Assembly (NCBI RefSeq): GCF_907164915.1
Contig: NC_061862.1
Location: 120,121,877-120,185,876, forward strand
From: Impatiens glandulifera
Lineage: Eukaryota > Streptophyta > Magnoliopsida > Ericales > Balsaminaceae
Length of the DNA: 64,000 bases
Direction: 5' to 3'
Within the stretch, counting starts at the first letter, position 1; each line of letters begins with the position of its first letter. Positions 1 to 63,474 of this stretch are shown here, piece after piece. The translations under genes and the position numbers were made by a program. The notes beneath the pieces were generated by a model. The model was not told where the DNA came from. It searched no databases and saw only the letters and a program-made list of their open reading frames with translations.

Positions 1-1031
1 TCGTATTGGTATGAGGTACTAAACCCTCATTCTAAGTTGGAGCAATAGTTGTGGCGTTAAAACGAGGTGGAGTAGGAATATTTACCTCGGACTGGGCTTC
101 TTTTGTGAGGATAAGGTTTCAGTTGCTTCTTCTGGTCTTGCTATTGCACGGCTAGTGGTATTAGCGACAAATTTAGCGACTGAATTGAATCCCTTTGATG
201 GTGAAGCATGAGTGGACGGATTAAATTTTTCGAACCACCCACTGATCTTCCTCCTGCCTTCTTTGTATTGACAGTCTTTCCCCCACTCAATTGTTGGCGT
301 GTCACCTCAGAATTATACTATTTGGATTTGTTTATCTTGGTAATATATCGACCACTAAAGGCAGAAGTTATAATTTTACTAGGGTTTAGAGGGGTACCTG
401 GACTGGTGGGAATGTTTAGATGTGTCATAATCCACCCGATCTGCATTGTGAAGTCGAGACTGTGTTTGTTGTGGGAGGACACCATTTCGTACAAAGTGTT
501 AAATAAGATTAGCCCCCAGTTGATGTTATCTCCCCTAATGATGGCGCCCATCATATCAAACTTTGATTGAGTTATGATGTCAAAGTTTCCGCCCCTTGCT
601 TGTAGGGATTTAGCGGCAATGTCGCACATAACACGATATTCGCACTTTAAATCTTTCTTCTAGCCGTTGACGCTCACTGGAATGCCACTGTCGGAGAACG
701 AAGACTATGGTTTAGTTAGAGTAGTCAGAGATAGCGCTTCCGAGAAACCCCTGCTAGTAGTTGAGAGATGCAGGACTTCATCGAATAGTTGTTCTGTAAT
801 GATGAACTTCACATCATTCACCTTGGATAAAATACAAATTGCATATAGCTTTGTTGAATCAAAGAATCCACGAACCTCTTCAAGATAGAAGATAGGAGGA
901 CCTTCTAAAAAATATCTCAGGCTAGATTCCTAACGGATCTATTTATTTACTGCATCTTGATGCTTCCAGATTCATATATGGAATCAAAGTTCACCTGCAC
1001 GATATGGTTAAATAACGCATTATCTTTAGCC
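1..1031 (-). pseudogene. accessory ORF copy 1 (long type) of element A, broken
   Basis: Reading from the ATG at 1031, the product starts MAKDNALFNHIVQVNFDS, the typical N-terminus of this family, then hits stops and frameshifts. The clean part, 629-318, shows GGNFD, AIIRGDNINW and a Q-I-G-W stretch, and closely matches copy 5 in element B (GGNFD, GIIRGDKIN). The LPTEG site is eroded to an LSTTSRG-like sequence. Below 318 the reading frame becomes low-complexity and continues past the window start, as expected for the long version. The function is unknown. The domain layout is reminiscent of the 'putative plant transposon protein' domains, an unverified inference. A pyrimidine-rich leader of TCATCT repeats lies just upstream (1036-1115). 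Confidence 0.75.
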
Positions 1032-1386
1032 ATGTTTATGGATTAGAAGAAGATGAAGATGAAGATGAAAAAGAAGGATGAAGATGAAGATGCTTTTTAG
1101 AGAGAAGGCAAAGCAAAAATATTTTAGAGTTTGTATGGGAAATTTTAATCCTAGATTTCTGGCATGCATTCCATTTTAAGTGGGATATTCCAAACGTGTA
1201 TCCAACTTCCCTTATAAGTTGAACCGTCATTTTTAAAGTGCATTTCCCCAAAATGATTAAAAGAGGAAATTTGACGCTAGTTTGAAAATTATTTCCAAGG
1301 TACAATCATTACTTTTAAAATTAAATTCTTTATGACCGTTATTTAAGAAAATGACTTTTAATTATGCAAATTAATTAAAAACACTT

Positions 1387-1400
1387 AGATTTATATAAGC
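1387..1400 (-). promoter_or_regulatory. TATA box candidate for accessory ORF copy 1
   Basis: The minus strand reads GGCTTATATAAATC, followed by a transcribed-looking leader rich in TCATCTTC before the ATG at 1031. The distance to the ATG (~360 bp) is longer than for the other copies, so this assignment is weaker. Confidence 0.35.
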
Positions 1401-1619
1401 CATAACTTTATATTAAATATAGATAACTTTATAAATTTAAACTTAAGTGACCGGTTTTAAAACAAAATAACATGTTCACATTCTTCTAAACCGAAAGGAC
1501 AATGGAGGTTTAGCACAAGATCTAACGACTTGAGAATCCTAGGGTTAGTTCCTTCCTAGCATGTGTCACTTCTACCCAATGGATCCAGCTTACGACTTTT
1601 TTCTTTAGTCAAAAGGTTC

Positions 1620-2010
1620 TACGTGCAAGGTTGACGTGAAAATCAAGGAGGATCCAACCAAGCTTAGAAACATGCCACTTTAAGAATTCCGAGAATCGTT
1701 CGGTAGGAAGATCAAAAAGCCTAGTGAAATCTTCATCTTTAAGAATTAAATTTCTTCATGCCACTTTTGACAGAATGGAATCATCAACAACTTTTGCTAG
1801 GCACCTTTTTCAACTATCTCATTAGCTAATGCCCAAGCATTTTTGAAGAATTCAAAGACTTCCTCATCATGAATCACTTGAGATCCTTTGAGGAACTTTC
1901 TTAACCTAGAGTTTTCTACAGATAAAAACATTTCAAGGACCTCCTCTTCTTCAAGAGACAGAACAAAGTCGAAATCGATGATTAGGGTGTTTAACGAAAG
2001 CTTGATCCAT
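1620..2010 (-). pseudogene. accessory ORF copy 2 (short type) of element A, truncated
   Basis: The ATG at 2010 opens MDQAF, but one base of frameshift later the family signature appears: LIIDFDFVLSL, then EVLEMF and a conserved R-L-R-K-F-L. A further frameshift leads to FTRLFDLPTERFSEF, where LPTER (1696-1710) is the family LPTEG site. The match fades near 1620, before the NW motif. The N-terminus LIIDFD matches copy 4 of element B (SLIIDFDSTL), so copies 2 and 4 look like the same paralogue. It sits between RNase H and copy 1, so A carries at least two accessory ORFs in a row. Confidence 0.7.
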
Positions 2011-2789: not shown

Positions 2790-4300
2790 TATCAGCAAGT
2801 CCTAGGATGTTTCTAAAGTAAGAAAACTTAGTCTCCTAGAGTTGATTGGTGAATATGTTGGCCACTTGATGATCAGTTGACACATATTCCATCCGAATAT
2901 GCTTATCTGTCACATGGTCCTGAATGAAATGATGTCAGATATCGATATATTTGTTCCTCAAGTGTAACACCAGGTTATATGTTATGACAATGGCACTCGT
3001 GTTGTCATAAAAGATCGGAGACTCCACAACCTCGATACTGAAATCCCTTAGTTATTGTTGAATCTAGAGTAGTTGAGCAACGCAACTACCGACTGCAAGA
3101 TACTCTGCCTCTATTGTTGAAGTTTCAATGGATGTTTTCTTCTTTTTGTACCAGGACACGAGTTGGTGACCTAGGAACTGACAAGTTCCGCTGGTACTCT
3201 TTATGTCCACTTTACATCTTGCATAGTCTGCATCGGAATAACTTATTAGATTGAAATAGGAATCTTTTGGATACCATAGTCCCATGTTTTGAGTTCCTTT
3301 AAGATATTTTAATATTCTCTTAGCCGCAACATAATAAGATTGTTTGGGGTTGACCTTGAATCTCCCGTAGACTCCTACCGCGAATAGAATATTAGGTCAA
3401 CCTACTGCTAGGTAGAGAAGAGTGCAAATTATTCCACGATAAGCAGTATTGTCAACGCTTTGACCATCTTCATCCTTGTCAAGCTTAATCGAGGAACTCA
3501 TTGGTATTTAGGTAGAAGAACAACTCTCCATGCCAAACTTCTTTAATAGCTCCTTTATATACTTGGCCTGATTGATGAAAGTTCTCCCTTCAATTTGGCA
3601 AACTTGAAGGACCAAAAAAATAATTTTAGCTCGCACATCATACTCATTTCAATCTTATTTATTATCAAAATAAAAATTTTCACACAATTTAGGGTTAGTT
3701 AACCCCAAAATAATATCATTAACACAAATTTGTACAAGTAAGATATGCTCATCTTTCTCAAATATAAATAATGTCTTATCTATGGATCCTATGGTAAAAT
3801 CATGATAAAAAAAACTTGACTAGTCATATAATGCCTTATCCTGTTTATAAACATGACTAATAAATGTAGGATTCTTAAAATTCGGGGGTTGCTCAACATA
3901 AACTTCCTCATTGATTATACCATTTTGAAAAGCACTCTTAACATCCATTTAAAAAACTTTGAAATTTTTAAAAGCAGAAAATACTAGAAAGATTATAATG
4001 ACCTCTAATCTGGCGACATGAGCTAATGTCTCTTTGAAGTCAATTTCTTCTTCCTATTTGTAGACTTGGGCAACTAGTCTAGCCTTGTTCATTGTAACCA
4101 AACTGTCTTATTTATTCCGAAAGACCCATATAGTTCCAATGACAGATTGATTAACTGGTCTTTGAACTAGATGCCAAACTTTATTCCTCTCAAATTGGTT
4201 TAGTTACTCTTGCATTTCTAAAATCCAATCAGGGTCAAGCAATGTTTCATCCACCTTTTTAGATTCAATATGTGAGATGAAAGTAGAATTTTCATATTCT
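2790..4300 (-). pseudogene. copia reverse transcriptase-RNase H of element A
   Basis: From 4300 downwards the minus strand reads the copia RT. MDVKSAFQNGIINEEV is near 3955-3895. The catalytic YVDD box is replaced by CVND near 3735-3720, so one catalytic aspartate is lost. RNase H follows: GLWYPKDSYFNLISYSDADYA and the SxxTxEAEYLA-like T-I-E-A-E-Y-L-A are readable in 3285-3064. The C-terminal HxxxD region and the terminal F-R-N-I-L-G-L-A-D peptide end near 2790. Several frameshifts and stops (for example at 3420 and 3510) break the frame. In a live element this enzyme copies element RNA into DNA in the virus-like particle; this copy cannot. Confidence 0.85.
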
Positions 4301-4559
4301 TCTAATAGTTGATGTCTGGTCCTAATAGGTGTAGAGGGGTTACCCATGATTAGCTCGGGAGGATGATTTTTATTCTATTTGAGGTTCGGTCTTGAAATGC
4401 TTTCTGACCGACCAATTATTTTATCATGATTTGACTGACTGGTACGCTGATCAATGTCAGAACGACCGGTTTCCTCGGCAATATCTGAGCCGTCAACTAC
4501 TTGTTGTGGAGCAACTTGATCTGGCTGAACTTCGGCGTTATTAACCGTTTGGTCATAGA

Positions 4560-5480
4560 CAATTCTTTGGTAGATTTAAATTTAATCTTCACTATCAGAT
4601 AGGATATTGATATTCTCCAATCTGTTAGATAAATCAATGGTTATGGAAGTGTTACTTTCACCAAATTCATCAAATATAATATGGGATGATTCTTCAACAG
4701 TAAGAGTTCTATTATTATAAACTCTATATACTTTACTAACTGTAGAATATCCTAGCATAATACCAACATAATATTTAACATTAAAAGCATTAAAATAGTT
4801 TTCCTATTGTTGTGGATGTAACACTTACAACAAAAGATCCTAAAATACCAGATATTAGGAACTTTATCATGGTAAATCTCAAAGGGAATTTTACTAAATC
4901 GTTTATTTATCATGGACCAATTTTGGGTATGACATGCTGTATTGATAGCTTCTGCCCAAAGTATTTGAGCTACACTTGAATCTGCTATCATGGATTTGGA
5001 AGCTTATTTAAGAGTTCTATTTCTTCTTTTAGCTAAGCCATTTTGTTGAGGGGTTTTAACACTATACAACATATGTCTAATACCAGATTCCTCAAGGTAA
5101 GAAGTAAAAGTTCTATTAGTGAATTCGGTGCTTCTATCACTTCTAATTTTTTTAACACGTACAAAATTTTCATTTTGTACTCTTTTAAGCATTTTAATTA
5201 AATTTAGGGTTGCTTTATCTTTGGAAACTAAGAAAATAAATCAAGTAAACATAGAATAATCATCAATCATTACTAGTGTGTACTTCATTCCTCTTAGGCT
5301 GGTTACTTTAACCGGACCGAAAATGTCCATGTGTAGAAGTTCTAAACATCTGTTTGATTGATTATTTCATTTACTTTTGAAAGTTGATTTGATTTGTTTG
5401 CCCATATTGCAAGCAAAGCAAACCTCGTCTTTTAAAAACTTAATGCTATGAATACCTTGAACTAACTCTTTAGTACAAAT
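4560..5480 (-). pseudogene. copia integrase of element A
   Basis: The HHCC zinc-binding N-terminus is partly readable (ends C-F-A-C-N-M-G-K-Q-I-K near 5425-5395). The DDE core follows: I-R-S-D-R-S-T-E-F near 5160 keeps the second Asp. The catalytic Glu of the PQQNGVAERRNRT-type motif is replaced by Lys (TPQQNGLAKRRNRT, 5050-5010). The next helix WAEAINTACHTQN is at 4955-4915. Frameshifts separate the pieces. Normally this integrase inserts element DNA into chromosomes; loss of the catalytic Glu alone would inactivate it. Confidence 0.85.
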
Positions 5481-5589
5481 ATAATTGATTGTTTTAAATT
5501 TTAAATTATTTAACCTTTTATGCCACAACTAGTTTTGGTCGCTTTTAGAAATCATGTAAATAGAGTTATCAGAATTATTTTAACATTTT

Positions 5590-6000
5590 ACTTTATAAAT
5601 GGTTTCTAACCTATGCCCTGTCAACAAAGTACTTCCCTAATAATTCTTAACTAGACATGCTTATTTATGAAATTCAACAGTTTATCCTATGTCACACATT
5701 TGACTTATGCTACGCAAGTTATAAAAAAAAATTTCAACATGTAGCACATTATTTATTGTTTGGTTTCCATGGACAATCTTACCCTTGCCTACAGCCTTAC
5801 CCTTAGTGTTGTCACCGAAAATTATCTTTGAACTAGATTCTTTCACAATATCGGTTAGCAGCGTGTTATTTCCAGTCATGTGCCTTGAACATCCATTGTT
5901 CATGTACTATTCCGAATCCTCCAAGTATTTAACCAGTTTACCCTACAAAATACAACTATTTACACCTTTTGGTACCCACATTTAATTGGGTCGACGACTA
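5590..6000 (-). pseudogene. copia protease and pre-integrase segment of element A
   Basis: 5903-5682 reads NNGCSRHMTGN, where copia proteases have DSGCSRHMTGN. The catalytic aspartate is therefore Asn. It is followed by the usual I-I-F-G-D-N and LHVE...NLRSISQMCD blocks. Upstream (5990-5905) is the shared linker that ends VNS..GKLVKYLEDSE. Confidence 0.8.
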
Positions 6001-12706: not shown

Positions 12707-12764
12707 TGTTAGATAAAATTCATCGGTCAATAAGAACTTAACAAAACACACTTATTGTACAGGA

Positions 12765-16372: not shown

Positions 16373-16377
16373 ACCTC

Positions 16378-21325: not shown

Positions 21326-22568
21326 TGTTAGAAAACTAGATAGTTAATTAATAAGTAATTAACTATCTAAAAGAACTTAACTTAATTCAACTTTATGTGT
21401 AGGTACATACCTTCAACCTGGCCGGTCAAAACTATTCAACTGAAACAAGATAAACCGAAACAGATTACTCATATTCTCGGAAGTCCGGTTCGGCTAGAAT
21501 TCAAGACCGATCAATCTATCAACCGACATGTGTCCGGTCAGACCAAACTCTAAGAGCAACACATATTTCCACCGGACAGTGTTAAATCAAAACAAGACTA
21601 AAATATGGATACAAAGGCAATTGTCGTGTTGATGCAAACATATATTTCTCGGAATGTGTAGAGGAAGATCCTCAAAGGTTCAGACTGTGTCACTTGTATT
21701 CTGAAATAAGTCTGCTGATTACACTGAAGGGAGCTATCAGATGAATAATTACCGGATTTTGTATAAATCCAGAAGCAACCTTCAAAGAGCAGGCCGACCA
21801 ATGTATAACTGCCAAGTGTACAAAAACACAAACGTACAACCTACCTAATTTCAAGTCGGCACGACATCATCATTTGGGAAGCTTCCATCGGATTGTTGAT
21901 CCTTTGACCAATCATCTAAGAGAGAGAAATATGACCGTTGTCATATTTCCACCATAAAGGAAGTAAAAAGGCTGAAGAAAAGCCTCTTCTTCGACCTTAT
22001 ACTTGTGGTCACTATCTAGCTTTGGACTCTGAATCATGCGAATATACTTTGAGAAATCTACAAAGTTATTAAGTGATAAGAACAAACTAAATTGTTTTGT
22101 GTGTTTACATATATGTAAAAGTGTATTACAATATTATGTGAGTGTTGTAAAATGAACATCGAGCAGTAAATAAGACTCTATTGTGTGTTGTATTGTGTGG
22201 TTGAATATTCCTTAGTGAATATCCTTCCATTGTTTGAGAAGAAGGAGTGACGTAGGAATTTTATCTCCGAACATCCATACAATCTGTGTCTTGTGTTCTT
22301 TAATTATTTATGGTCATTTAACCGAACCGGTTTCCCTCTATTCTAACTGACCCTTCTCTATTCTTATTTATATTTGATCTGTGTGTGTTGATTTAGGCTG
22401 AAACAAACATTTCTTCCCTTGAATTCGGTTTCAAGAGTTTGTGAAAGTCTGTGTGGTGTTAAGACCGGTGTTAATTCCTAACCGGATTAGCGTCAACGGT
22501 TGTGTGTGTGTTTAAGCGGTCTCCTTTAGCCGGACCCTGGTCTCCTATCGGCGATCCCGATCTTAACA
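21326..22568 (+). repeat. 5' LTR of element B
   Basis: Starts TGTTAGAAAA and ends ATCTTAACA. U3 has several CCGGTC/ACCGA motifs. CCATAAAGGAA near 21951 is in the TATA position (ATTATAAATGG in the 3' copy). The leader module follows: CCTTC pairs with GAAGG at 22223-22245, then TGACGTAG. Confidence 0.95.
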
Positions 22569-22631: not shown

Positions 22632-23455
22632 ATGAGAAGCCCCCCTATGCTAGAAAGTGATGCGTATGTCGACTGGAAGGCTTAGATGTATCTACATCTG
22701 ATTACCATGGATGATAAAATGATGACCATTCTTAAATAAGGTCCGATAAAGATTGAGAAAGAGAATGGTGAATGGACAACTGAAGATAGAAGAAGAAACA
22801 ACCTAGACAACCATTGCATGAGGCATATCTTCAAATCTTAGGACAGAAACACGTTCGGGAAAGTTGGAGATTGCACGTCTGCAAAGGAAGTCTGGGAAAC
22901 GGTGATTCAGCTTCATGAGGGAAATGAAAGAACATGAGAAAACAAGATACTGGTGGCAACTCGGAAATTTGAGAATATCAAAATTAAGTTGGGTAAAATC
23001 ATGAAGGAGTTCAGTGATCGGTTCACAAATGTGGTGAATGAGTTGTCTACCCGTGGAAAGAAGTATGACAACAAGGAGACCATTGTCAAAGCACTAAGAT
23101 CTCTTCCTAGCGCTTGGGACATAAAAACCATGGTGATGAGAGAATCTAACTGCCTCGAAAAAATGAAATTGCACGATGTCTTTAAAGACTTGAAGGAATA
23201 TGAGTTCGAGATGAGTTCAATGTCAACTGCAACCAAAGCTTTTATGACATCCGTGGAGTCAACCGTTCCGGCACCGGTTCAAACTGCTGAACAATTTACC
23301 GAGTATGCAATGGTTATGATTGTAAGAAAATTTGGAAAATTCATAAAGAATAGTCAATCATCAAACAACTCCAACTTCAACTACGGTGATAAATCTAACA
23401 TTAGATGTTTTAATTGTAATGCTTTAGGTCACTACAGGTCGGAGTAGAAGACCAA
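22632..23455 (+). pseudogene. gag (UBN2-type) of element B
   Basis: From ATG 22632 the frame has the copia Gag N-terminus (D-A-Y-V-D-W-K-A, then I-K-I-E-K-E-N-G-E-W) and the UBN2 region. The latter stays open for 164 codons (22953-23447), with ALRSLPSAWDIKTMVMRES and LKEYEFEM. The zinc knuckle reads CFNCNALGHYRSE followed by a stop where the last Cys should be. Stops at about 22683, 22737, 22838 and 22936 make it non-functional. In live elements Gag forms the particle that packages element RNA. Confidence 0.9.
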
Positions 23456-24287
23456 GAAGAGATGACTGACGACCGGATGACCGAAGACCGGTTTACAATA
23501 ACCAAAGGGGTGAATATCAGCAATCCGGTGAAGGCAAAGAAATTCAGAAGGCACTAATAGACGATGATGGCGGGAGCTTATGGGCTTATACCGACTCGGA
23601 AACCGATGATGAAAGATTACCTTGCCTCATGACTAAGGAGGAAGAGGTATTTGATTTCTCTACCGAAGAGTTTACCAAGGAAGATATGGTCACTACTCTC
23701 AATGACATGGTCATTGAGTTTAAGAACCTATCTACTCTTGTACCAACCCGGCTGAATGTCCATACCGTATCAACCGAATAACTTCCAAACCGGTGAATCA
23801 AGTGGAACCAAGACTAATGAACCGATTGAACTATCCTATGAGAATGAGAAGCTCAAGGAGATAGCTCAAAGACATCCAAAATGCAAGTTTGACCTTGGAT
23901 ACAAAGGCGGTAAATCAACTAACTGGAAACATTCCAAAGAGTTGAATCTCAAACAAGAACAAACTTCCTTTCATAAAATTTGTTAATAGTAGCTCAACTG
24001 ATACTAAGGCAGATCATGACTCACAATTGGCTAAGGAAATTAAATATGTAAGTCCAACCGACACGGCTAAATGGCTTCATCTTGAGAGAAGGAAAGCCAA
24101 CCGGCCAGTAAGAAAAGAAACCGGTAAACATTCATATATAACAAATCAACATTCACCACCACGACACAATGAGGCACCTACGGGCAGACAGAGAGATGTC
24201 AAACTAGGTAACGGTGAAATAATTAAAACTACTACTGGGAAAGTCATCCGACTAATTCAAGTATGGATTCCCAAGGAACTAATCAAC
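23456..24287 (+). pseudogene. gag spacer of element B, cut by solo LTR
   Basis: The acidic segment (E-V-F-D-F-S-T-E-E-F-T, then TLNDMVIEF) and the later block P-T-D-T-A-K-W-L-H-L-E-R-R-K-A match the C and D spacers. The block ends VIRLIQVWIPKELINHG at 24292, where the nested LTR interrupts it. The frame resumes at 26489. Frameshifts are present between 23780 and 24020. Confidence 0.75.
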
Positions 24288-26488: not shown

Positions 26489-27135
26489 ACCCAAGTAAAT
26501 GTGAGTACCAAATAGGTGTAAATATTTATTTTTGCAAATTAAGAAGAACAAGCATTTGGGAAACACGGAATGGTATCTGGACAGCGGTTGCTCTAAATAC
26601 ATGACCGGAAATAGCAGATTGCTAACCGATATTGTTTAGGAAGTCGGTGCAATGATCACTTTCGATGATAATTCTAAAGGTAGAGCCATGGGAAGGGTAA
26701 GATTGTCCATGAAAACTTAACTATAAGTAATTTACTTCTTGTTGAAAACTTGCATTTTAAAATGTGCATGTTTGAATTAGTAAAATGTGCGATGTAGGAT
26801 ATACGGTTGAATTTCACAAACATGCATGTTTAGTTAAGAATTCTCAGGGTAGCATTTTATTAACTGGAAATAGGTTAGGAAACATTTACAAAGTGGACTG
26901 GAAAACTAAAATAGAAAACCCGGTTTGCATGATAACTAAGAATGATTTAAACTGACTTTGGCATAAACGATTAAACCACCTGAACTTCAAAAATATTAAT
27001 GTTATTTGTACCAGAGAGTTAGTTCAAGGGATGCCTAACATGAAATTTGCAAAAGATAAAGTATGCTCTACATGTCAAATGGGGAAACAAATAAAGGCAA
27101 CTTTTAAAAATAAAGGGAATTATCAATCAAACTAA
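26489..27135 (+). pseudogene. protease and pre-integrase of element B
   Basis: After the linker comes EWYLDSGCSKYMTGN, with catalytic Asp intact (codon at 26580). A stop (26638) and frameshifts follow. The HHCC zinc segment of integrase is readable at 26957-27110 (WHKRLNHLNF ... VCSTCQMGKQIK). Copia protease would cut the Gag-Pol polyprotein. Confidence 0.85.
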
Positions 27136-28020
27136 TGCTTAGAATTGTTTTACATAGATTTATTTAGACCGGTTAGGGTCACAAGCCTAGGTGGTATGCA
27201 TTATACTATGGTTGTTATTGATGATTACTCTAGATTCATTTGGGTAATATTTTTGGTTTCTAAAAATGAAGCTACTCCAAACTTGATTAAACTTTTTAGA
27301 AGATTGCAAAATGAGAAATCAATACGTATAAATAAGATTAGAAGTGATAGAAGAATCGAATTTACAAATAGTACATTAATTGCATTTCTTGAGGATTCGG
27401 GTATTTTTCTCAAAAATTTTGGGCTGAGGCTATAAACATTGCATGTCATACACAAAACCGATCAATGATCAACAAACGGCTAAATAAAACATTGTTTTAA
27501 GTATACTATGACAGAGTTCCTAACATCCAGTATCTTAGGATCTTTGGCTGTAAATGTTATATTCACATCAACGGCAAAAATTATTTGACCGCTTTTGATG
27601 CTAAATCCGATGTCGTTGTAATGTTGGGTTATTCGGTAGTTAGTAAGGCATATATAGTGTATAACACTAGAAATTTAACTGTTGAACAATCTTAGCATGT
27701 TGTTTTTGATGAATCGGTTGAAAGTAATACCGCATCACCCTTTGATCTACATAATCGGATGGAAAATTTAAATATTCAATCTGATGATGAAGACGATGTT
27801 CCAGTTCTTAGAAGGTTTTTCTATGACCAATTAGTTAATGTTGAAACGTAGTCGGATCAAGCTGCTTCACAACAGGAAGTTGACACCTCAGTGTCTACTG
27901 AGGAAATCAGTCGGTTTGACTCTGTTCAGCCTATAGATATGTCTAACCTTGATCAAATAACTAGTCGCTTGGGAGATATAACCGGACCAAACCTTAAAAG
28001 GAATAAGATCATCATTCTGA
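27136..28020 (+). pseudogene. integrase of element B with internal deletion
   Basis: The open frame 27145-27435 gives the DDE core: D-L-F-R-P, VVIDDYSRFIW and I-R-S-D-R-R-I-E-F (first two Asp present). After LEDSG the sequence jumps to the WAEAIN helix (27420). This removes about 30 residues, including the PQQNG...ERRNRT segment with the catalytic Glu. The C-terminal part (FGCKCYIHI, GYSVVSKAYIVYN) follows with stops. The region to 28020 is the acidic linker towards RT. Confidence 0.85.
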
Positions 28021-28189
28021 ACTTATAATAGGTAACCCCTCATCACTCACTCGAACTAGGCATCAACGTTTGGAAGAATATGAAAACTCAGATTTCATAT
28101 CAAAAATTGAGCCGAAAAAGGTGGATGAAGCATTGTTAGATCCCGATTGGATCTTAGAAATGCAAGAGGAATTGAATTAGTTTGAGAAG

Positions 28190-29040
28190 AATAAAGTCTA
28201 GCATCTAGTTCCAAGACCGAAACATCAATCGGTTATAGGAACAAGATGGGTGTTCAGAAATAAACTCAATGAAAATGATTTGGTTACGAGGAACAAGGCC
28301 AGATTAGTGGCCCAAAGATATAAACAAGAAGAAGGCATTGATTTTGAAGAATCATTTTCTCATGTGACCATACTTGAAGGCATTAGAATTTTTCTTGTCT
28401 TTATGGCTTTCAAAAACTTCAAAGTATTTCAAATGGATGTTAAAAGTACATTTTTAAATGGTCAGTTAAATAAAGAGGTTTATGTTAAAAATCCATAATT
28501 AATTAGCCATGTGTATCGACTGGATAAGGCCCTTTACGGTCTAAAATAAGCTCCTAGAGGTTGGTATGATATTGTAACAAAATTCTTTTTCAATCATGAT
28601 TTCACATAGGCTCGGTAGATAAAACCTTATTTAAATTTTAGAAAAAGGGACACATTTTACTGGTTCGAATTTACGTGGAAGATATAATTTTCGGTTCAAC
28701 CGATTCTAAGTTATGTTAAAAATTTTCAAAAATAATGACCGACAAATTTGAAATGAGTATGATGAGAGAGTTGAGTTTCTTTCTAGGTCTCCGGGTTCGG
28801 CAGATCGAGGGAGAAACATTCATCAACCAATCCAAATATACAGCTGAATTGCTAAAGAAGTTCGGAATGGACAACTGCTCTGCAGCCGCTACCCCTATGA
28901 GTTCATCTATTAAATTAGACAAAGATGAGGATGGTCAAGGAGTAGACATTATGGCCTACCGAGGGATAATCGACTCACTATTGTACCTAACAACTAGTCG
29001 ATCGGGCATCTTGTTTGCGGTCGGAGTATGGGGATGATTC
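28190..29040 (+). pseudogene. reverse transcriptase of element B
   Basis: [28 protein letters not shown] and [19 protein letters not shown] are readable in 28230-28498. After several stops comes the active-site region, which reads IYVEDIIFGST (about 28672-28704) instead of YVDD, so one catalytic Asp is Glu. The thumb-side LKKFGMDNCSAAATPMS and AYRGIIDSLLYLT follow in an open frame to 29037. Confidence 0.9.
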
Positions 29041-29590
29041 CAAGCCAATCCTAAGAAATCACATTATACAGAGGCCAAAAGAATCTTATAATATTTAAAG
29101 GGCACTCAAGATGTGGGACTGTGGTATCCAAAGGATTCAAGCTTTAACCTAACTAGCTATTCTGATGCAGACTGCGCAGGTTGTAAAATAGACCAAAAGA
29201 GTATCAGCAGTATATGCCAGTTCCTAGGTGACCGTCTTGTCTCCTGGTATAGCAAGAAATAGACTCCAGTTGCTACTTCAACAGCAGAGGTGGAGAATCT
29301 TGCGGTCTGAAGCTACTGTGCTCAACTCCTTTGGATCCAACAACAACTGAAAGATTTTGGAATAACTGTTGAGGAATCTCCGATCTTCTGTGACAACACC
29401 AGCGCGATAGCTATTACATACAATCCAGTGTTGCACTCAAGAACAAAACATACCGACATCAGACATCATTTCACCCGAGAGCATGTATAGCAGAAGCACA
29501 TCCGCTGGAATACGTCTCGACTGATCAACAAGTAGTCGACATCTTCACAAAGTCATTACCTGAAGCTAAGATTTCTTTCTTTTGAAACAT
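29041..29590 (+). pseudogene. RNase H of element B
   Basis: GLWYPKDSSFNLTSYSDADCA (split by stops), the SWYSKK...TSTAEVE region and the DIRHHF segment define the copia RNase H, which degrades template RNA. The terminal K-S-L-P-E-A-K peptide ends near 29580. Stops at 29036, 29089, 29261 and 29309 inactivate it. Confidence 0.85.
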
Positions 29591-30382: not shown

Positions 30383-30458
30383 TCATCAAGCAAATTGCCT
30401 TGCTTTCTTGCAAACAAAGTTCTTCTCTCGACTTTTAATCAGTTTCTCAATCTGAAGA

Positions 30459-32291: not shown

Positions 32292-32686
32292 GAATTTTTC
32301 TTCGTATTTAACCGTTTTCAATCTACAACCGATTATTTTGTTGTATGACCGGTTGTTCTACCTAACCGGACTATATTTGCCTTTTAAAAGTAACTGCTTA
32401 ATTTAAATGAATGTGCATTACTTTTATCTTTTACCGTTCATCATTTTTCGGTTCATTGTTAATTCGGTTTAGTTTTAATCCGGTTATACCACTTTAATTC
32501 AGATCATTCCAAATTTACCACTTAAACTTACCATCAAAAAAGCTTACCGCCCACTGTTTATCATCCGCATTTACCGTTGATCTCTTTCCGTTAAAAAGTT
32601 ACCGCAATAACTTTTGGAGGGAAAGTTGGCGCCTTTTTGCTGAGAGGGTGTGACGGTTCGACGACATAACCTCCACAACCGATCAT
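32292..32686 (+). other. spacer between accessory ORFs 4 and 5
   Basis: No ORF. Rich in ACCGGT, CCGATT and CGGTTC motifs that also occur in the U3 of element B's LTR. Confidence 0.45.
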
Positions 32687-36295: not shown

Positions 36296-37530
36296 TGTTA
36301 GAAAAAATAGATAGTTAACTAATAAGTAATTAACTATCTAAAAGAAATTAACTTAATTCAACTCTATGTGCATGTACATATCTTAAACCCGGCCGGTCAA
36401 AACTATTCAACCGAAACAGGATAAACCGAAACAGATTACTCATATTCTCGTAAGTTCGGTTCGGCTAGAATTCAGGACCGGTCAATCTATCAACCTACAA
36501 GTGTCCGGTCAGACCAAAAACTAAGAGCAACACATATATCCACCGGACAATATTAAATCAAAACAAGACCAAAATATAGATACAAAGGCAATTGACGTGT
36601 TGATGCAAACATATATTCCTCGGAATGTGTAGAGGAAGATCCTCAAATGTTTAGACTACGTCACTTGTATTCTAAAATAAGTCTACTAATTAGACTGAAG
36701 GGAGTTGTCAGATGAATAATTACCTGATTTTGTATAAATCTAGAAGCAACTTTCAAAGAGCAGGCAGTCTGCAAATGTACAACTGCCAAGTGTACAAAAA
36801 CAGAAACGTACAAGCTACCTAATTTCAAGTCGGCACAGCATCATCATTTGGGAAGCTTATATCGGATTGTTGATCCTTTGACCAATCATCTAAAGGAGAG
36901 AAATATGATCGTTGTCATATTTCCATTATAAATGGAAGCAAAAAGGTTGAAGAAAAGCCTCTTCTTCGACCTTATGCTTGTGCTCACTATCAAGCTTTGG
37001 ATTCTGAATTTTGAGAATATACTTTGAGAAATCTATAAAGTTATTAAGTGATAAGAACAAATTGAAATGTTTTGTGTGTTTACATATTTGTAAAAGTGTA
37101 TTATAATACTATGTGAGTGTTGTAAAATGAACATCGAGTAGTAATTAAGACTCGATTGTGTGTTGTATTGTGTTGTTGAATATTCCTTAGTGAATATCCT
37201 TCTCATTGTTTGAGAAGAAGGGGTGACGTAGGAGTTTTATCTCCGAACATCCATAAAATTTATGTCTTATTTCCGGCCATTTAACCGAACCGGTTCCCCT
37301 CTATTCTAACCGACCCTTCTCTATTCTTATTTTTATTCGATCCATGTGTGTTACTTCAGGCTGAAACAAACATTTCCGCCTTTGAACTCGGTTCAAGAGT
37401 TTGTGACAGTCTATGTGGTATTAAGACCGGTGTTAATTCCTAACCGGATTATCGTCAACCGTTGTGTGTGTGTTTAAGCGGTCTTCTTTAGCCGGAACCC
37501 GGTCCCCTATCGGGGATCCCGATCCTAATA
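36296..37530 (+). repeat. 3' LTR of element B
   Basis: 1235 bp, closely matching 21326-22568. ATTATAAATGG near 36927 is the TATA box. The leader hairpin CTTCTC/GAGAAG (37199-37217) is intact, followed by TGACGTAGGAG and CTCC. The terminal CA has become TA. Confidence 0.95.
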
Positions 37531-54989: not shown

Positions 54990-56584
54990 TATTGGGATCG
55001 GTGTTAATAATAGAGTCATGGATCTGACTATTGTGAACAGTTTACGATAAACAATTTGATAATAATCCTGTGAGGGATTAATATATGTTTCTATTCTCCG
55101 CAAATATTCACAAATTCTTGAAACAGATTCATGTGTGGAACTATTTGTTTGATTTGAAGCTTTAGATAATTGAATGCAAATGTTAAAAAGTAAAGAACAT
55201 AATGAGTTTTATGGATGTTTGGAGATGAAACACCTACGTCACCTCTTCTTCCACAACCGGAAGGATATCCACTAAAGACTTTGAATCACATACAACTCAC
55301 TGAGCTAGCTAACTCTCTATTGAATATAACGACCTTTGTTCAACTTACAACATTGAGGTTTCTCACAGAAAGACAGTATGCAATTACAATATAATCACAG
55401 CTATACAGTAAGAGATGTTTTTCTTGTTGCTTGAGGGACTTTTTGAATCTAATGTGTTAAGCAAGTGTGTGAAGTAGAAAGTCGGTAAGTATTTCGGATG
55501 TGGTTCGACCGTTGTCCTTGGGCTTCAATTTATAGTTGAAGTACTCCAACGATCGAATATTCTTTGTAAACACGTGGAATGTGTCCGTTCGATAGCCTCC
55601 TATAGTACGAGAGTACAGCAGACTATGAGTATTTGGATCGTGGCCGTACCGAACGGGTAGTGTGCCGAATATGATCTTGTCTGGTCTGGAAATGCAATTG
55701 CGAGATATTCGTGTACATGGCATTATTTTATTTGATATAATTAACTGGCATGTCAGACTGCTGAAAGTAAGTGGAGCAGGCAGCTGAGTGATCATGGTTA
55801 GATGGATGCTTCCTTCAGACAACAGCTAAAGTGAGGCATTAAACGTTCTTCTTTAGACCGCGTTTAAAGGAGTTAGACGACCCCGTCTAACTACGCTTCC
55901 TTTAGACTGTGTCTAAAGGAGTTAGACGTCCTCGTCTAACTATGTCTTCCTTTAGACCGCGTCTAAAGGAATTAGACATCCTCGTCTAACTACATTTCCC
56001 TTTAGACCGCGTATAAAGGAGTTAGACGTCCTCGTCTAACTACGTTTCCTTTAGACCGCGTCTAAAGGAGTTAGACGTCCTCGTCTAACTATGTTTCTCT
56101 TTAGACCGCGTCTAAAGGAGTTAGACGTACATTTCCCTTTAGACCGCGTCTAAAGGAGTTAGACGTCCTTGTCTAACTACGTTTCCCTTTAGACCGCGTC
56201 TAAAGGAGTTAGACTTCCTCGTCTAACTACATTTCCCTTTAGACCGCGTCTAACGTCTAACTACGTTTCCCTTTAGACCACATCTAAAGAAGTTAAACGT
56301 CCTCGTCTAACTACGTTTTCCTTTAGACCACGTCTTAAGGAGTTAGACGACCTCGTCTAACTATGTAAGATGTCTAGGACTACCTGCTTCAGACCACGTT
56401 AGAAGAAGCAACGTCTTTTATATTTATGCCTGCACAAAACAAATAGACAGCTTAACTTGATCATAACTACATCATTAAAATTATGTTCCAAATTATAAGA
56501 AATCATTTGTATTATTTTAAAGTTAATTAAACTATTTCTTCCTTAATTAACTTTCTCTTTTCTTTGTTTTAATTTTTCCTAACA
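54990..56584 (-). repeat. 3' LTR of element E
   Basis: On the minus strand TGTTAGGAAA to CCCAATA. TATA: ACTATAAATTG at 55526-55537. Leader hairpin CTTCC/GGAAG (55248-55263, 6-nt loop) with TGACGTAG next to it. U3 carries a ~50-bp tandem array at 55850-56360. Confidence 0.85.
55850..56360. repeat. 50-bp tandem array with paired dyads in E LTR
   Basis: Unit: CTTTAGACCGCGTCTAAAGG then AGTTAGACGTCCTCGTCTAA then CTACGTTTCC, about ten copies, one truncated. Each unit has two perfect hairpins: TTTAGAC-CGC-GTCTAAA and GTTAGACG-TCCT-CGTCTAAC. Confidence 0.92.
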
Positions 56585-56720
56585 ATTTCCCCTTTTTGAT
56601 GATGTTAAATCTAAACAACAACAATTAAGTTGAGAACACAAATCAAAATGAATAAGAACGCAGTAGTTTAACCAAAGTATTCAAACATAGTTTAAGGATA
56701 CATAACATGAGATAATAGAT

Positions 56721-59700
56721 TTAAGATCCTTCCCTTTTAACTCTTGGATCTGGACTTTGAAGAATCGATTCCCTAGTAATAAGGTTATGTAGCCGAGCAA
56801 TTTTTCGACCACCACTACCACCGCCTCTATCTCCTCCACGACTGTGGCCACCTCTATCAGATTGACAGCTGCCTCGGCCACCTTGGGTGGTTTTTCTTTT
56901 GGATCGTGTTCCACGAGCGGAGCTTGACCCGCCTCTATTACTTCCTTCCCCTTTTTAACATTATCAAGGTTGATAGCAATAAGAGCTCTTTCTTTTGCAG
57001 CTGTAGCTGCATCTTCATTAACCTGGAAACTCCTTGCAACAGTCTCTACTTGCTAGACATTCGGCTTCTACACTTCTTAGAGAATTTGCAACCTCCAATA
57101 CTTGAGAGAGACATGTTCAATCAAGGACCTTGTCTCATGGTGGAACTCTAAATTGAAGTTTTTCGATTTAACATGAAAATCAGAATGTTGTTTGTGCAGA
57201 TTCTTTTCAAGCTTTTTGTATTGAGTGTGAAGAAGATTTACTTCATAAGTATTTCTCAAAAGATTTTTGTCTGTGACTTTTTGAGCAGAAACTATGGAGG
57301 TAAAGACTTCTTTGTTCTTTGTGGATGCACTTTCAAGATTTTTTTAGTCTAGATGACATTTCCATTATGTTATGTTTCATAGTGCCTAACGAAACCATAA
57401 TAGATGTGTGAAAGCTTGCATCTCCAGGAGAAGCTTCCTCAGACGAAGTAGGGTAGAGAATACAATGTGCGAGTGTGTTGGAACAAAGCGAATATGATTG
57501 ACGTGGAGATTTACCTGTAATGATTGCTCTAATTCCTTATCCTAGGTGGGTTCTGAAGGAGAAATCATCATATTACAAGAGTCATTTCTGACATCTTGGA
57601 ACTCACCACACGGCTGATTGACAAATATTGAAATGTCTCCAAATTGATGAGGAACTTCAGGAAGATATTCATGAAGAGAACCGGCTATCCTCACAGAAGA
57701 TAAGTGACGGGTGGTAGAAGGAGTGGACAACCTTTCTTCAAATGTCTTTTCTTTATATGGGGAAGAGGACTTAGCTTTTTCAGATTCTGCAGCTCTTTGG
57801 GAACGAAAGCGTTCCCCTTTAGTAGACGGGATCTGCTCTTGATCAGATGGCTTTAAGGGTTCCCCCTCAACTTGTGAAGTTGATCCCTGTTTGGAAGACT
57901 TTGAGGGTCCCCCCTCAACAGATAGCTACTTTCTTTGTTCAGATGTTAGGGGAACTTCAAACGTCTCTTTCTGGATGGAAGGCGTCTGCTCATCGTTAGG
58001 GGCATCTACTTCTTCTTCTTCGAGGATCGGAGAATCTTGATGATCTTCAAACTAAGGAAGTGTCTATTGAAGTCTAGATAGGGGACAACGCTCGCCTTGT
58101 GGGGATGGAATGTCATCAATGTGAATGACCAACTCCTCCTCATCTTCGCAGTTGAACTCTATCCCAGATTATTCAGATTGAATGATATAAAGTGTAGAGG
58201 ATCTTGTACCATGAACGTATTGGAGGACAGTAGAGAAATAAGCATCCATGAGCAAGTCGTGGAATTTAAGAGCCTTTTTCTCTAAGTTAGAATTCCTGTC
58301 GAGAGAGTTGAAATTTGCTTCCTCGCCTTGAGTAGAGGAAACTGAGCACGCCCTATCGTATTTGCCAAGACGAGTTCTCTTCTTTAAAGCGCTTTGTGGA
58401 CACTTGTTGTTTTTGCCATTTGAGAATACACTTGTCCATTCTTACTAGTTTCTTCCATTCTGTTGCAAACTCATTGCTGAAAATAATTTCATCGTATTGT
58501 GAATAGAGTCTATAACTCATCCAAGTGTCAAAGACTTCAACCTTCTCAGTAGCTTTTACCTCAACATCCTCCATGATGAGGTCAAAGATTAAATTGGCAT
58601 CAGGTATGTTTTCCGGTACCTCCACAGCAACACATTTTCCTTTTCCTACAACTTTGGCTGGTTTGGGAATAGGCACTAGTTCTTTGAAAAAAATATCTAG
58701 AGCCCCTCTGGTTGCTCTTAATATTTCGAATGGAGAGGGGGTTTTTGAAACGCACCTTCTGGAAGCTCAGTTGCAGTTTCAGTTGCTTTATGAACATGCG
58801 GTTCTTTAATTGTTTCATCAATAGACGTTGCAGCATCTAACTGAATGGGTGCTTGTTCGAAAGTAGTAGTAGTAGTAGTCATAGGAACTACTACCTTCTC
58901 TGTTTTAATTGTAATGTTAATATTACCAGCAACATCTGCAGCTATTGGTTCATCAAGGAAAGCAGACGTGTTTTCCCTGTTGATACAATCAACATTTTGA
59001 CCAATTGGCTCAACAGTTGGTCTTTTAGCTTGTTCCACCACTAGAACTTCAATATTGGGCACTACGGCCATAGGAGCAGAAGAGGTTACCTTAGATGACG
59101 TTTTCGCGGCTTTAGACGCCTCTGTTTGATTTGATCCATGAGTAGACGACTCAGCCCGCTTTTTCATTGGCTGGCTAATGGCGATAGCGAGAAAGATGAT
59201 AGAGGGACATCGGCGATGAGGGTTTTCTCTTGTCTCTCCCTTTTAAGGATGGAGTCAACTTCTCATGAGTCTTTAATAGGTGCCCTCTTTTGGCTATTAG
59301 AGCTTGCAGCGAACTACATGACTAAAGATTTGGCTCCCTTAGAAGTCGTTTTGCAACTAGAAGTCATTGGGCGCTTGGACCAAGTGATCGATTGACCACT
59401 CGTCTATTGACCGGAGGATTCAGGATTCAACGCCTTTGTGAGTTTCATCCTTGCCAAGGAACCCCTTACTGAGATGGCAGTAAATATTCAATAGGGGTTA
59501 AAAACCGCACCCCTATCCATAGGAACTCCCAAATTCTCCAAGAGCCAACCGAGTTGGACAGAGAAGCCCACACTCTACTTGCTCGATGGAAACCATCTGG
59601 CATAGGGTTAAGAATAGAGTGGATGCCCAGTTGATTGGTATCCCTCTAGTTATAGCCACCATGTATTCAAAACTATCTTGGGTGTAAAGATCGAAGGACC

Positions 59701-60141
59701 CTGCCCTTGCCTTAAGCGACTTTGTAACAACGTCGTTTAGAAGGCAGAAATGAGACTCCAAGGCTTTATTCTTCCCATTCATGTTAATCGGTCTGTCAGT
59801 GTTCGAGAAAACACTCTTCATTTCTGAGATAATCTCGACCGGAATCGCAAAGTCAAAGGTATGACCCTCAGAAGGAAGTTTGAAGAACTCCGTGAAAATG
59901 GATTTAGAGAAGGAAAAATTTGCGTCGTTCACCGTTGCCTTGACCGAATCTCCAACCTATTTCCCTATTTTGAAGAACTCACGAACTTCTTCTTCATATA
60001 GAACAAAAGGGCCGCTGAGAAATTTTCTAAAGCTAGATGCCTCCAAAGATTTGAACATCTCCACAATATCTTGTTGTTAAAGAGATCTTGTTCAAATAAT
60101 ATCTTATTGTGAGAGAAAGAGATAATCTTTTTAGTTGTCAT
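56721..60141 (-). pseudogene. accessory ORF copy 6 (long type) of element E
   Basis: ATG 60141 starts MTTKKIISFSHNK. A frameshift leads to DIVEMFKSLEASSFRKFLSG and Y-E-E-E-V-R-E-F-F, then a stop. An open frame 59932-59513 follows, with FKLPSEGHTFDF (LPSEG 59864-59878) and MVAITRGIPINWASTLF. The tail is hydrophilic and Thr/Val/Glu-rich (59167-58718), with an aromatic helix-like block YRLYSQYDEIIFSNEFATEW (near 58525-58466) and a coiled-coil-like segment (57259-57077). It ends in an RGG-rich stretch (about 56895-56790) and stops at 56721. ~1140 codons in several broken frames. Function unknown. Confidence 0.8.
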
Positions 60142-60453: not shown

Positions 60454-60483
60454 TCAAGTTATTCGAAATTTAGAATATGACTG

Positions 60484-62442
60484 TGATAGGATCAGCTTTA
60501 TCGTAAGAGACGGGGGTCTGGCTAAGGATGAAGGCTTATGAAAAACGGTTTGATAGAAATCATGTTAGGGATTAATATCTCTTTCTATTCTACGCAAACT
60601 TGTGTAAACACTTGAAACAGATTCAAGGCGGAATTGTTTACTTGGGTTTGAAGCACAAGCTGAAATATGAAAAGATGACAGAAATGAAGAACACAACAAT
60701 TTGTTTATGGATGTTCGGAGAAACTCTTCTACGTCACCCCTTCTTCCAACCACTAGAAGGATTCACTATAATATGATGAGAATCAAATACAGTTTACACA
60801 CACTTAGCTCACTATTGAACATAATACTTTTTGTTCAATTATAAGATGAAGAATATCACTCAGCTAATGGTGTTTTGATTCTAGCTCTCTCTCTCGATTC
60901 ACACACAGTTCAATCAGAAAGAAGTTTCACAGAATAAGTTCAGTAAGCAAGATGATTGAGTAGACTCTCTCTCTGCAAAATCAGAATGCTTGTTTGTTTT
61001 GCAAAAGCTCAAGATTGTTAAGGCTGGGTAAGGTGCTTCGTCCGTTGTCCTTAGGATTGATTAAATACTGAGCAGGAGCTAACGGTCGAATCTTCAAGAA
61101 TGATACGTGGCACTCTTCCATTGGAAAGCCTCCATTGTACACAGCAGGTTCTGAGCACAAGGATCGTGGCCGTACCGAACTAGTAGTGCGCCGAATATTC
61201 CATCAGGGATGTACCTGCAAAACGGGTAATGTGAGGAAAATTCTCTTACGTGGCATTCCTTGATTGGATTCATATAGCTGTTGTACTAATCTTCACAAGA
61301 AAATGGAGCAGAAGTAGGGTACAGCTATAGCACGTGGGTAGGAGAAATGCTAGATTCAAGCGTACTGCTTAAACAGAGCATTAGACGTATTTCAATTAGA
61401 CGGATTTGAGAAAATCAGTCTAATGAAATAAGTCAACTCCTTCTAATGAAAAACGTCTATTAGACCACCTGGTCTAATAAAATTAGACTCGCGTCTAATT
61501 ACAATAACCATTAGACGGGTACGTCTAACTCTACTGAGTTAGACTGACGCGTCTAATTCTGGTTCTACCTCAGACTTGTCTAAAGGAGTTAGTCTCACGT
61601 CTAACTTTCACTAATTAGACTACCCGTCTAATTATTAAATAACCATTAGACTGACACGTCTAACTCTCACTGAGTTAGACTGACGCGTCTAATTCCGGTT
61701 TTACCTCAGACTAATTTGAAGGAGTTAGACTCACGTCTAACTTTCACTAATTAGACTACCCGTCTAATTATCCAATAACCATTAGACTTCCACGTCTAAC
61801 TCCAATGAGTTAGACTGGCACGTCTAATTCCGCGTATTCATTAAACTATCCGTCTAATTCTTTACGTCTATTAGACTTACACGTCTAACTCCGATGAGTT
61901 AGACTGTACGTCTAATTCTAATAGACTCACGTCTAATTCTATTAGACTCACGTCTAATTCCGTGTATTCATTAGACTATCCGTCTAATTCTTTATACATC
62001 TATTAGACTTACACGTCTAACTCCGATGAGTTAGACTGTACGTCTAATTCCATTATACTTACGTCTAATTCCGTGTATTCATTAGACTATTCGTCTAATT
62101 CTTTGCACATCTATTAGACTTACACGTCTAACTCCGATGAGTTAGACTGTACGTCTAATTCCATTAGACTCACGTCTAATTCTATTAGACTTACGTCTAA
62201 TTCACGCGTCTATTAGACTGCACGTCTAACTCCGTTGAGTTAGACTGTGCGTCTAATTCTATTAGACTTGCGTCTAATTTTATGCGAATGGAGATTAAAA
62301 TCGTTCTAATGACCCTCATTAGATCCAAGTCTAATAACATGTAGTCTTAATACACCTGTATCAAAACTCAAAAATTATTTCATCATCAAAATATCAGTGG
62401 GTAAATTATTTCAACACTTAGTCAAAATAATTTGACCCAACA
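60484..62442 (-). repeat. 3' LTR of element F
   Basis: On the minus strand TGTTGGGTCA to CCTATCA, 1959 bp. A TATTTAAT promoter motif is at 61060-61067. Leader hairpin CTTCT/GGAAG (60743-60759, with a G-U pair) and TGACGTAG. U3 is a long TAGACG dyad tract (61380-62300). Confidence 0.88.
61380..62300. repeat. TAGACG dyad tract in F LTR
   Basis: Dozens of TTAGAC...GTCTAA dyads separated by 2-5 bp. A larger unit of ~110-130 bp starts TCTATTAGACTTACACGTCT at about 61868, 61999 and 62110. Confidence 0.9.
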
Positions 62443-62728
62443 ATTTCCCCTTTTTTTATGAAGAAATTGCAAACCTGCATACATATAACAAGACATGCAT
62501 TCATCCAATAAATAAACAAACAGACAGCATGCAAGTAATCATTCAAAAACATCCATGTTGATCACATATGAGTGTTTTCAGAAGAAACACTCAAAATATT
62601 GTTCAATGTAACCACGATATGCTTACCAAAAACATTATGAAAACATTCAAAATAACTAAAAAAAGAGATTTAATCATTAGTCTTCTTCTTCTTCCTAGTC
62701 ATGACTTTTGGACAGGATAGACTTCAAC

Positions 62729-63474
62729 CTAAGATGTCTCTAAGACTGCAGTTAGAGGGGAGTTGGAGTCTTCACTTTTTCGTTTCTTAGACTTGAGCGT
62801 TTCCACCCTTTGAATGTAATCAACCACTTTTTGGTAGTTCAGGATCTTAGAGGGGAGGGGAAAACTCTTACCATGTTCGTTCAGACGATGATAGAGAAAA
62901 GAACTGAGAGGACCGTCAAAGCCAAAGATCTTCTTTCTAGTGATAACCATTCTGACAAGATTCCCGAAGAGGAAGCTTGTCCAGTTCACCGGAACACCCC
63001 TGGTGATAGCCACCATGATCTGAAAGACCTTCGTACAATATTTGTAGGAGGTTTCTTTAGACAGAAGGGATTTCGAAATGATATCACTTAAAAGAGCATA
63101 TTCAACCTTCAGAAGGTTTTTCTTTCCATGAATATCTACTTCAGGGGAATCGGAAAAGACTTTTATCATCGTAATCATTAGGTTAAGGTGAGTGGTAGAG
63201 AAATCATCAATACCTTCTGTTGGGAGATGAATGAACTCACCAAAAGATTCTTCTGTGATCCATACCATCTGGCCCATTACTGCACCAGCAATAACATTAT
63301 CTTGATAGGAGCTAGCGGTTTGGAAGAATTCGTTGACAAGTTGTTCATGATAAGTTTCATGAGGGGTGAAGAATCTTCTCAGCCCAGAAGCTTTTAGCGA
63401 TTCAAACATCCAGATTCAAGAGTGGATACAGATTGAAAGTCCACTTGAATCGATTTTGGTCGGAAGGTCAACAT
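62729..63474 (-). pseudogene. accessory ORF copy 7 (short type) of element F, one frameshift
   Basis: ATG 63474 gives a start ending D-F-Q-S-V-S-T-L-E-S-G. A one-base frameshift near 63412 leads into an otherwise open 226-codon frame: MFESLKASGLRRF, YHEQLVNEFFQTA, FIHLPTEGIDDF (LPTEG 63212-63226) and MVAITRGVPVNWTSFLFGN. The Lys-rich end LKSKKRKSED could be a nuclear localisation signal (inference). This is the best preserved copy of the accessory domain in the window. It has no long tail and ends ~290 bp from the LTR. Confidence 0.85.

What the first reader, a model, noticed from the sequence alone, without database searches (positions are those of the whole stretch)
1..63474. Seven copies of an accessory gene family carried by copia elements
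Seven copies (1-1031, 1620-2010, 30459-31010, 31588-32291, 32789-35881, 56721-60141, 62729-63474) lie downstream of pol or next to a 3' LTR in four different elements. They share a ~220-residue domain with an FDS-like start, S-G-L-R-x-F, an LP(T/S)EG site and a MVAI......NW.....F block. The domain is not Gag, Pol or an envelope-like membrane protein: no signal peptide or membrane segment is visible. Accessory ORFs in plant LTR elements are known in general. Similar unnamed proteins seem to occur in Lamiales annotations (memory only), and I know of no assigned function.
Basis: partly seen in the sequence, partly recalled or inferred. Interest (0 to 1): 0.9.

Follow-up and report, generated by a model that had tools for sequence, protein, structure and literature searches.

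The report
Copia accessory genes resembling silencing blockers
Retrotransposons in this plant genome carry one to three copies of an extra gene, in the place where such elements are said to have an "envelope-like" gene, and its predicted shape is closest to a DNA-binding protein that another plant transposon uses to switch off host silencing.

Summary
[quoted passage not shown] The domain is a diverged PF20167 ("Putative plant transposon protein"): 12 of 20 and 11 of 16 sampled copies match, the best above the curated cut-off, though the window's best copy scores 25.1 against 45. In print PF20167 is reported for an Athila (gypsy) accessory ORF.
Elements carry one to three tandem paralogues; order in the element predicts relationship in 40 of 40 labelled copies. 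Two gene families show purifying selection (median dN/dS 0.14, 0.09). No membrane segment is seen. The place is that of the Sirevirus "envelope-like" gene; TTAGACG/CGTCTAA boxes crowd the LTRs and the stretch before the gene in E3.

The parts
285..926 (-). E0, last-position domain copy (broken, in-frame stops)
   Evidence: tblastn E 1.9e-22 (477-833) and 7.9e-15; best position label 'last' for both pieces
1699..1952 (-). E0, first-position domain copy (fragments)
   Evidence: tblastn E 3.5e-4 for 1812-1952; 1699-1788 alone E 0.69; best position label 'first'
2911..5924 (-). E0 copia INT-RT-RH, upstream of its domain copies
   Evidence: tblastn with L002 pol pieces; Pfam rve below its cut-off on 5007-5240 (27.6 against 32.6)
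21326..22566 (+). E1 5' LTR
   Evidence: 89.9% identical to 36296-37528 over 1247 columns
22644..23920 (+). E1 gag pieces
   Evidence: Pfam Retrotran_gag_2 39.9 bits on 22938-23444; tblastn
26538..29487 (+). E1 copia INT-RT-RH, broken
   Evidence: Pfam rve 40.6 and RVT_2 38.5 bits on pieces; tblastn
30439..30939 (+). E1 accessory gene, first position
   Evidence: tblastn; best hit 'first' 104 bits, next label 46
31660..32282 (+). E1 accessory gene, middle position, two frames
   Evidence: tblastn E 3e-15; both pieces best hit 'middle'
32613..32624 (+). promoter-like TTTGGAGGGAAA box before the last gene, followed by TTGGCGCC
   Evidence: present in 8 of 8 loci of the E1/L044/L049 types whose last-gene start was fetched, not seen in the two-copy E0-type loci; promoter role inferred
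32827..33544 (+). E1 accessory gene, last position, domain part, two frames
   Evidence: tblastn E 5e-15; both pieces best hit 'last'
33419..34848 (+). E1 last gene, basic/low-complexity part and tail, broken
   Evidence: open pieces; 34048-34845 matches the tail of L049's open 1008-codon frame, E 2e-12, 28%
36296..37528 (+). E1 3' LTR
54992..56169 (-). E4 3' LTR with repeated TTAGACG/CGTCTAA boxes
   Evidence: 86.0% identical to 72803-74000; 15 CGTCTAA/TTAGACG in 1178 bp
56681..59242 (-). E4 accessory gene tail, broken
   Evidence: open pieces
59513..60058 (-). E4 accessory gene domain
   Evidence: tblastn E 5.6e-23; best position label 'last' 97 bits, next 80
60484..62444 (-). E3 3' LTR with 34 TAGACG/CGTCTA half boxes
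   Evidence: 94.9% identical to 68712-70630; 34 against 1.4 expected
62729..63481 (-). E3 accessory gene (about 250 codons in its family; this copy has a frameshift near the start; 62729-63415 open; the start at 63481 is approximate)
   Evidence: ORF; PF20167 25.1 bits, below cut-off 45; 150 places of 85-100% identity scored in the genome
63482..64000 (-). part of the E3 pol-to-gene stretch that lies in the window; the stretch goes on to 64412 outside it
   Evidence: 15 half boxes in 63482-64412 against 0.4 expected

Best explanation
SHOWN: copia elements, E3 of a Sirevirus-like build, carry one to three sense genes between pol and the 3' LTR. Each encodes a diverged PF20167 domain of about 200 residues; in the two open gene types read in full it is followed by a basic stretch (KSKKRK type in E3's family, KRRKK in L049), and the last gene goes on to a long tail. 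Two of the gene families show purifying selection. INFERRED: the product is a nuclear, sequence-specific DNA-binding protein that works like VANC of VANDAL transposons. It binds short repeated boxes in the element's own non-coding DNA (in the E3 family the TTAGACG/CGTCTAA boxes in the LTRs and before the gene) and removes or blocks host silencing there. Paralogues by position would give several target specificities. It is not an envelope.
Confidence: 0.48

Rival explanations
1. The protein binds the element's own DNA or RNA boxes for another step: promoter activation, integration targeting, or reverse-transcription/nuclear import, not anti-silencing.
For: Box arrays sit in the LTRs and before the gene; PMC2829016 passages place such repeated motifs a short distance upstream of a promoter region and suggest regulation. 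A VANC-like fold points to DNA binding at most, not to demethylation.
Confidence: 0.27
2. It is the Sirevirus 'envelope-like' protein in the classical sense: a membrane or particle protein.
For: It occupies the place of the Sirevirus ENV-like gene, with repeated boxes before it as described for ENV-bearing Sireviruses; the last gene's tail looks coiled-coil-like by eye; a PMC3414828 passage names transmembrane and coiled-coil domains as the common trait.
Against: No membrane segment in Impatiens proteins; basic stretches; a compact fold predicted with high confidence. The same passage says it may not be a true envelope gene.
Confidence: 0.06
3. A capsid-associated or RNA-binding accessory protein (chaperone) or an RNA-silencing suppressor.
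For: PMC11728184 passages propose an RNA-silencing role for another accessory ORF (Tekay) from its predicted shape.
Confidence: 0.13
4. Decaying captured host gene without function.
For: The window's own copies are mostly broken.
Against: Purifying selection in two families; 150 close places of one family scored; order kept in 40 of 40 labelled copies.
Confidence: 0.03

Closest known systems
PF20167 Transposase_32, 'Putative plant transposon protein'
   Same: 12 of 20 and 11 of 16 copies match at E 0.01 (7 copies are in both sets), L045 with 52 bits against cut-off 45; 43 of 150 scored places in the genome pass the cut-off, one of them (in L043) beside copia RT-RH
   Different: The window's best copy reaches only 25.1 bits and two others no match at E 10; here the domain lies in Ty1/copia and in tandem paralogues
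Athila (Ty3/gypsy) 3' accessory ORF(+) of sunflower, PMC11728184 (passages read)
   Same: Sense ORF near the 3' end with partial PF20167 similarity and a predicted nuclear signal
   Different: Gypsy, not copia; no paralogue array or VANC likeness in the passages read
Sirevirus / SIRE-lineage ENV-like gene, eORF-3'F (PMC2829016, PMC3414828, PMC6317226; passages read)
   Same: Copia order, long element, sense gene between pol and 3' LTR, repeated symmetric boxes in LTRs and before the gene, AT/TG junction
   Different: No membrane segment; PPT octamer varies; box core differs from CGG-CCG; RT lineage not tested; sequence relation to SIRE1 ENV not tested
Third ORF of a Medicago truncatula copia family, over 790 aa, downstream of pol, PMC2533021 (passages read)
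   Same: Conserved sense ORF after pol in copia, weakly like SIRE1-8 ENV
   Different: No domain named there; not compared here
VANC21 / VANC6 of Arabidopsis VANDAL transposons (PMC5735166, PMC10398659; passages read)
   Same: Transposon-encoded accessory protein; predicted fold; repeated short motifs in the element's own non-coding DNA
   Different: Retrotransposon, not DNA transposon; no sequence similarity found; no DUF1985/DUF287 match; binding and demethylation untested
Retand antisense TRP28 (PF04195) accessory ORF, PMC11963269 (passages read)
   Different: Gypsy, antisense, different Pfam family

Membership tests
PF20167 (Transposase_32) | Profile match above the curated cut-off by the window's own copies | tested here: not met
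   62729-63412 25.1 bits against 45; 59513-59956 and 30439-30798 no PF20167 row at E 10
PF20167 (Transposase_32) | Profile match above the cut-off by relatives of the window copies in the same tree | tested here: met
   43 of 150 scored places; L045 52 bits. Hence filed as diverged kin, not each copy as a member
Sirevirus / SIRE lineage | Copia gene order gag-INT-RT-RH | tested here: met
Sirevirus / SIRE lineage | PPT octamer AGGGGGAG before the 3' LTR | tested here: not met
   E3 has AGGGGAAA then TTG; one AGGGGGAA follows pol
Sirevirus / SIRE lineage | AT/TG junction at the 3' LTR | tested here: met
   E3 and E1 read ...ATTGTT
Sirevirus / SIRE lineage | Repeated symmetric boxes in LTRs and before the accessory gene | tested here: met
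   E3; not seen in E1 LTRs
Sirevirus / SIRE lineage | Place in an RT/INT tree with reference elements | not tested
   no reference sequences at hand; hence 'Sirevirus-like'
VANC anti-silencing proteins | Fold of the solved VANC21 | tested here: met
VANC anti-silencing proteins | DUF1985 / DUF287 or sequence similarity to VANC21 | tested here: not met
   only PF20167 and one chance row at E 0.01; no VANC row among PDB sequences
VANC anti-silencing proteins | Repeated short target motifs in own non-coding DNA | tested here: inconclusive
   arrays in E3, E4 and the 41 kb element, not shown to be targets; absent from E1 LTRs
VANC anti-silencing proteins | Sequence-specific binding and loss of DNA methylation | not testable with these tools
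   needs EMSA/DAP-seq and bisulfite data
Envelope-like proteins | Membrane segment | tested here: not met
   Kyte-Doolittle 19-residue maxima of the Impatiens proteins of 185 residues or more 0.84-1.39; Dorcoceras up to 1.69; no dedicated predictor used
Envelope-like proteins | Signal peptide | tested here: inconclusive
   N-terminal hydropathy was taken from stop-to-stop frames, not from a known start (up to 2.41 in L036, before its likely ATG)
Athila 3' accessory ORF | PF03078 similarity | tested here: inconclusive
   no PF03078 row for 20 and 16 members at E 0.01; genome search for it unanswered

The most novel reading that the evidence does not exclude
The 'envelope-like' genes of plant LTR retrotransposons of both superfamilies (copia Sirevirus-like elements and gypsy Athila) are one VANC-fold family of element-specific anti-silencing DNA-binding proteins; the palindromic repeated boxes of Sirevirus LTRs are their targets; and tandem paralogues kept by position give one element several specificities.
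Probability: 0.27. Interest if true: 0.93.

Novelty: new variant of a known kind. Interest (0 to 1): 0.74.

Why it matters
What the envelope-like genes of plant retrotransposons are and do is an old open question; a passage of PMC3414828 says their origin is unknown, their function unproven and that they may not be true envelopes. If the VANC reading holds, retrotransposons, the largest part of many plant genomes, would encode their own sequence-specific blockers of silencing, and the odd palindromic boxes of Sirevirus LTRs, which a passage of PMC5311732 calls small-RNA mapping hotspots in maize, would have an explanation. One binding assay tests it.

Tried and rejected
Protein search with one sequence or the first alignment reached only Impatiens; a broader alignment reached Dorcoceras. 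The best viral-library match had E 0.3, so a viral origin gains no support. A clostridial protease row (1 of 20 members, E 0.0053), KaiA and F-box rows (E 0.15 or worse) and a Cre row (E 0.34) were taken as chance. That the E3 pre-gene stretch is a copied LTR promoter found only short weak matches, the longest 89 columns at 72%. A first view that the copies at 59.5 and 62.7 kb belong to one element (note) was dropped after LTR comparison. One box for all families was rejected. Folds not listed by the fold tools are not excluded.

Limits: I had chosen 20 of the 150 rows, all stop-free, plus the window copy, 20 of the 150 rows, most with long open frames (1 with a stop). Both favour low dN/dS; the contrast of rare and shared changes is the control, and it is absent (P 0.50). 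L003-L022 are 20 of the 41 matches, which were found by similarity to a last-position copy, so the agreement of their last copies is partly by choice. The labels were set by order in the locus but after I had seen the tree, and loci of unclear order (L001, L005, L009, L016, L020, L022) and some short pieces were left out. In the tree, 52 of 69 long hits were used: surplus E3-type copies and L003 (overlap) were dropped.
Full report
WHERE. The window is C1:120121877-120185876 of a 654 Mb assembly. The one protein hit of the first search is an Impatiens glandulifera protein on a contig of 65,853,558 bases, exactly the length of C3; Impatiens is Ericales.

OBSERVATION. tblastn recovers all seven copies. 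LTR comparison gives E1 at 21326-37528 (+), E3 at 60484-70630 (-; its 5' part lies in L002) inserted in E4 (54992 to beyond 74000, -), while E0 (-) has pol at 2911-5924 but no LTR pair found. E4 keeps gag and, next to it, what I read as the end of RH (frame; no tblastn row); tblastn finds no INT or RT of E4, so it looks pol-deleted. Pfam confirms copia integrase, RT, gag-pre-integrase and gag pieces.

ARCHITECTURE. In 10-kb stretches of related loci the order is INT, RT, RH, about 1 kb, first domain copy, about 0.7 kb, last copy, in one sense (for example L004, L008, L012, L017, L018); copia pol lies upstream in the same sense in 15 of 20 stretches L003-L022. Five PF20167 places, L044 to L048, hold three sense copies within about 3 kb (in L047 the third shows only its start). 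E1 too has three. E3 has one gene only, since its 3' LTR begins 284 bases after it.

POSITIONAL PARALOGUES. Labelled by order, 40 of 40 copies have their best hit outside their own locus with the same label (19 first, 17 last, 4 middle); between two-copy and three-copy loci 36 of 36 agree. In the tree of 52 sequences the last copies, with E4-type domains, form one group of 20 (support 0.98), and the middle copies one of 5 (1.00). The duplications are therefore older than these element families. E0-type loci were fetched by similarity to a last copy, which favours agreement of their last copies only; labels were set after the tree was seen, and unclear loci were left out.

SELECTION. E3 family: 150 places scored of 18,786 first-look candidates, 85-100% identical. 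In 21 copies, changes seen once are 139 nonsynonymous to 96 synonymous (pN/pS 0.43), changes seen twice 30 to 32 (0.28), changes shared by three or more 27 to 85 (0.09) (once against three or more, Fisher P 7e-10); median pairwise dN/dS 0.14 in 210 pairs. Last gene, domain part, 20 copies: median dN/dS 0.09 in 190 pairs (ratio where dS exceeds 0.02); 18:41 once, 5:21 twice, 10:33 shared (P 0.50, no contrast). The copies were chosen mostly for open frames, which lowers dN/dS.

FAMILY. PF20167 matches 12 of 20 and 11 of 16 members at E 0.01, with 7 members in both sets; the only other row is one chance hit. In the genome 43 of 150 scored places (of 3,707 candidates; 42 alone and 1 with its neighbours) pass the cut-off, one of them beside copia RT-RH (L043). 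The window's copies fall below it. Print search: 6 papers hold one of the family's names; the one that bears on this, PMC11728184, reports partial PF20167 similarity of a sunflower Athila 3' accessory ORF, which it relates to Athila ORF1 (passages read). In the listings and passages I saw (name searches; topic searches) there was no PF20167 in copia; only an open-licence library is searched.

PROTEINS. E3-type: about 250 residues, with KSKKRK near the end in 15 and a one-residue variant in 5 of 20 copies. Last gene, young family: an open 1008-codon frame (L049) with the domain, a KRRKK stretch, low-complexity sequence and a tail homologous to E1's. No membrane segment in Impatiens proteins of 185 residues or more. 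Calling the basic stretches nuclear signals is inference.

BOXES. E3 LTRs hold 31 and 34 TAGACG/CGTCTA half boxes, the 931 bases before the gene 15 (expected 1.4, 1.4, 0.4), gag 0, pol 2, gene 0. A second E3-type place has 10 in the 1,201 bases of L051 and 22 in the 901 bases of L052. E4 and the element at 41 kb have the box in their LTRs too. Twelve of 12 first linkers of E0/E1 type lack TTAGACG and show an excess of ACCGAT/ATCGGT (34 against 3.2), which is also raised in pol (14 against 4.3) and in the genes (8 against 2.4). This agrees with, but does not show, changing targets; E1's LTRs show no clear box. PMC2829016 passages describe repeated symmetric boxes in Sirevirus LTRs and before ENV.

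MECHANISM. Passages of PMC5735166 and PMC10398659 describe VANC: it binds short motifs in tandem repeats in its transposon's non-coding DNA, and methylation is lost. I propose the same for these proteins. Steps shown: gene, selection, predicted fold, boxes. Steps inferred: nuclear location, binding, target, loss of silencing. PMC12844716 raises VANC beside an accessory ORF of sunflower Tekay elements and asks whether such ORFs shape methylation (passage), so the general idea is not wholly new; the PF20167-VANC link was not found in the searches named.

Noticed in passing
window 32613; L044 2208, L045 2200, L046 2414, L047 3447, L048 2266, L049 3434(-), L050 1099: A TTTGGAGGGAAA box precedes the last gene in 8 of 8 loci of the E1/L044/L049 types, with TTGGCGCC and mostly a TATA-like stretch in the 7 printed; not seen in two-copy E0-type loci. 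Looks like an internal promoter; the likeness to an E2F site is recalled. TACCGC stands before it on one strand only.
   Followed up: partly
window 37957-41200 and 46185-53000: Arrays of a roughly 82-bp satellite; one repeat family counts 102 copies.
   Followed up: no
window 12764-16373 and 41061-46148: Two short LTR elements with gag-like frames and no pol row, the second with TTAGACG boxes in its LTRs.
   Followed up: partly
L001 8838-9179 (-): A further last-type copy, 74% identical to the one at 477-833, about 1.6 kb beyond E0's last copy.
   Followed up: no
P0001, P0011: Impatiens gene models that include this transposon domain, one named aminoaldehyde dehydrogenase 2-like: likely annotation artefacts or real fusions.
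   Followed up: no
P0003-P0010: Dorcoceras proteins called Dystroglycan-like or mucin-2-like seem named after their low-complexity tails; the shared part is this domain.
   Followed up: partly
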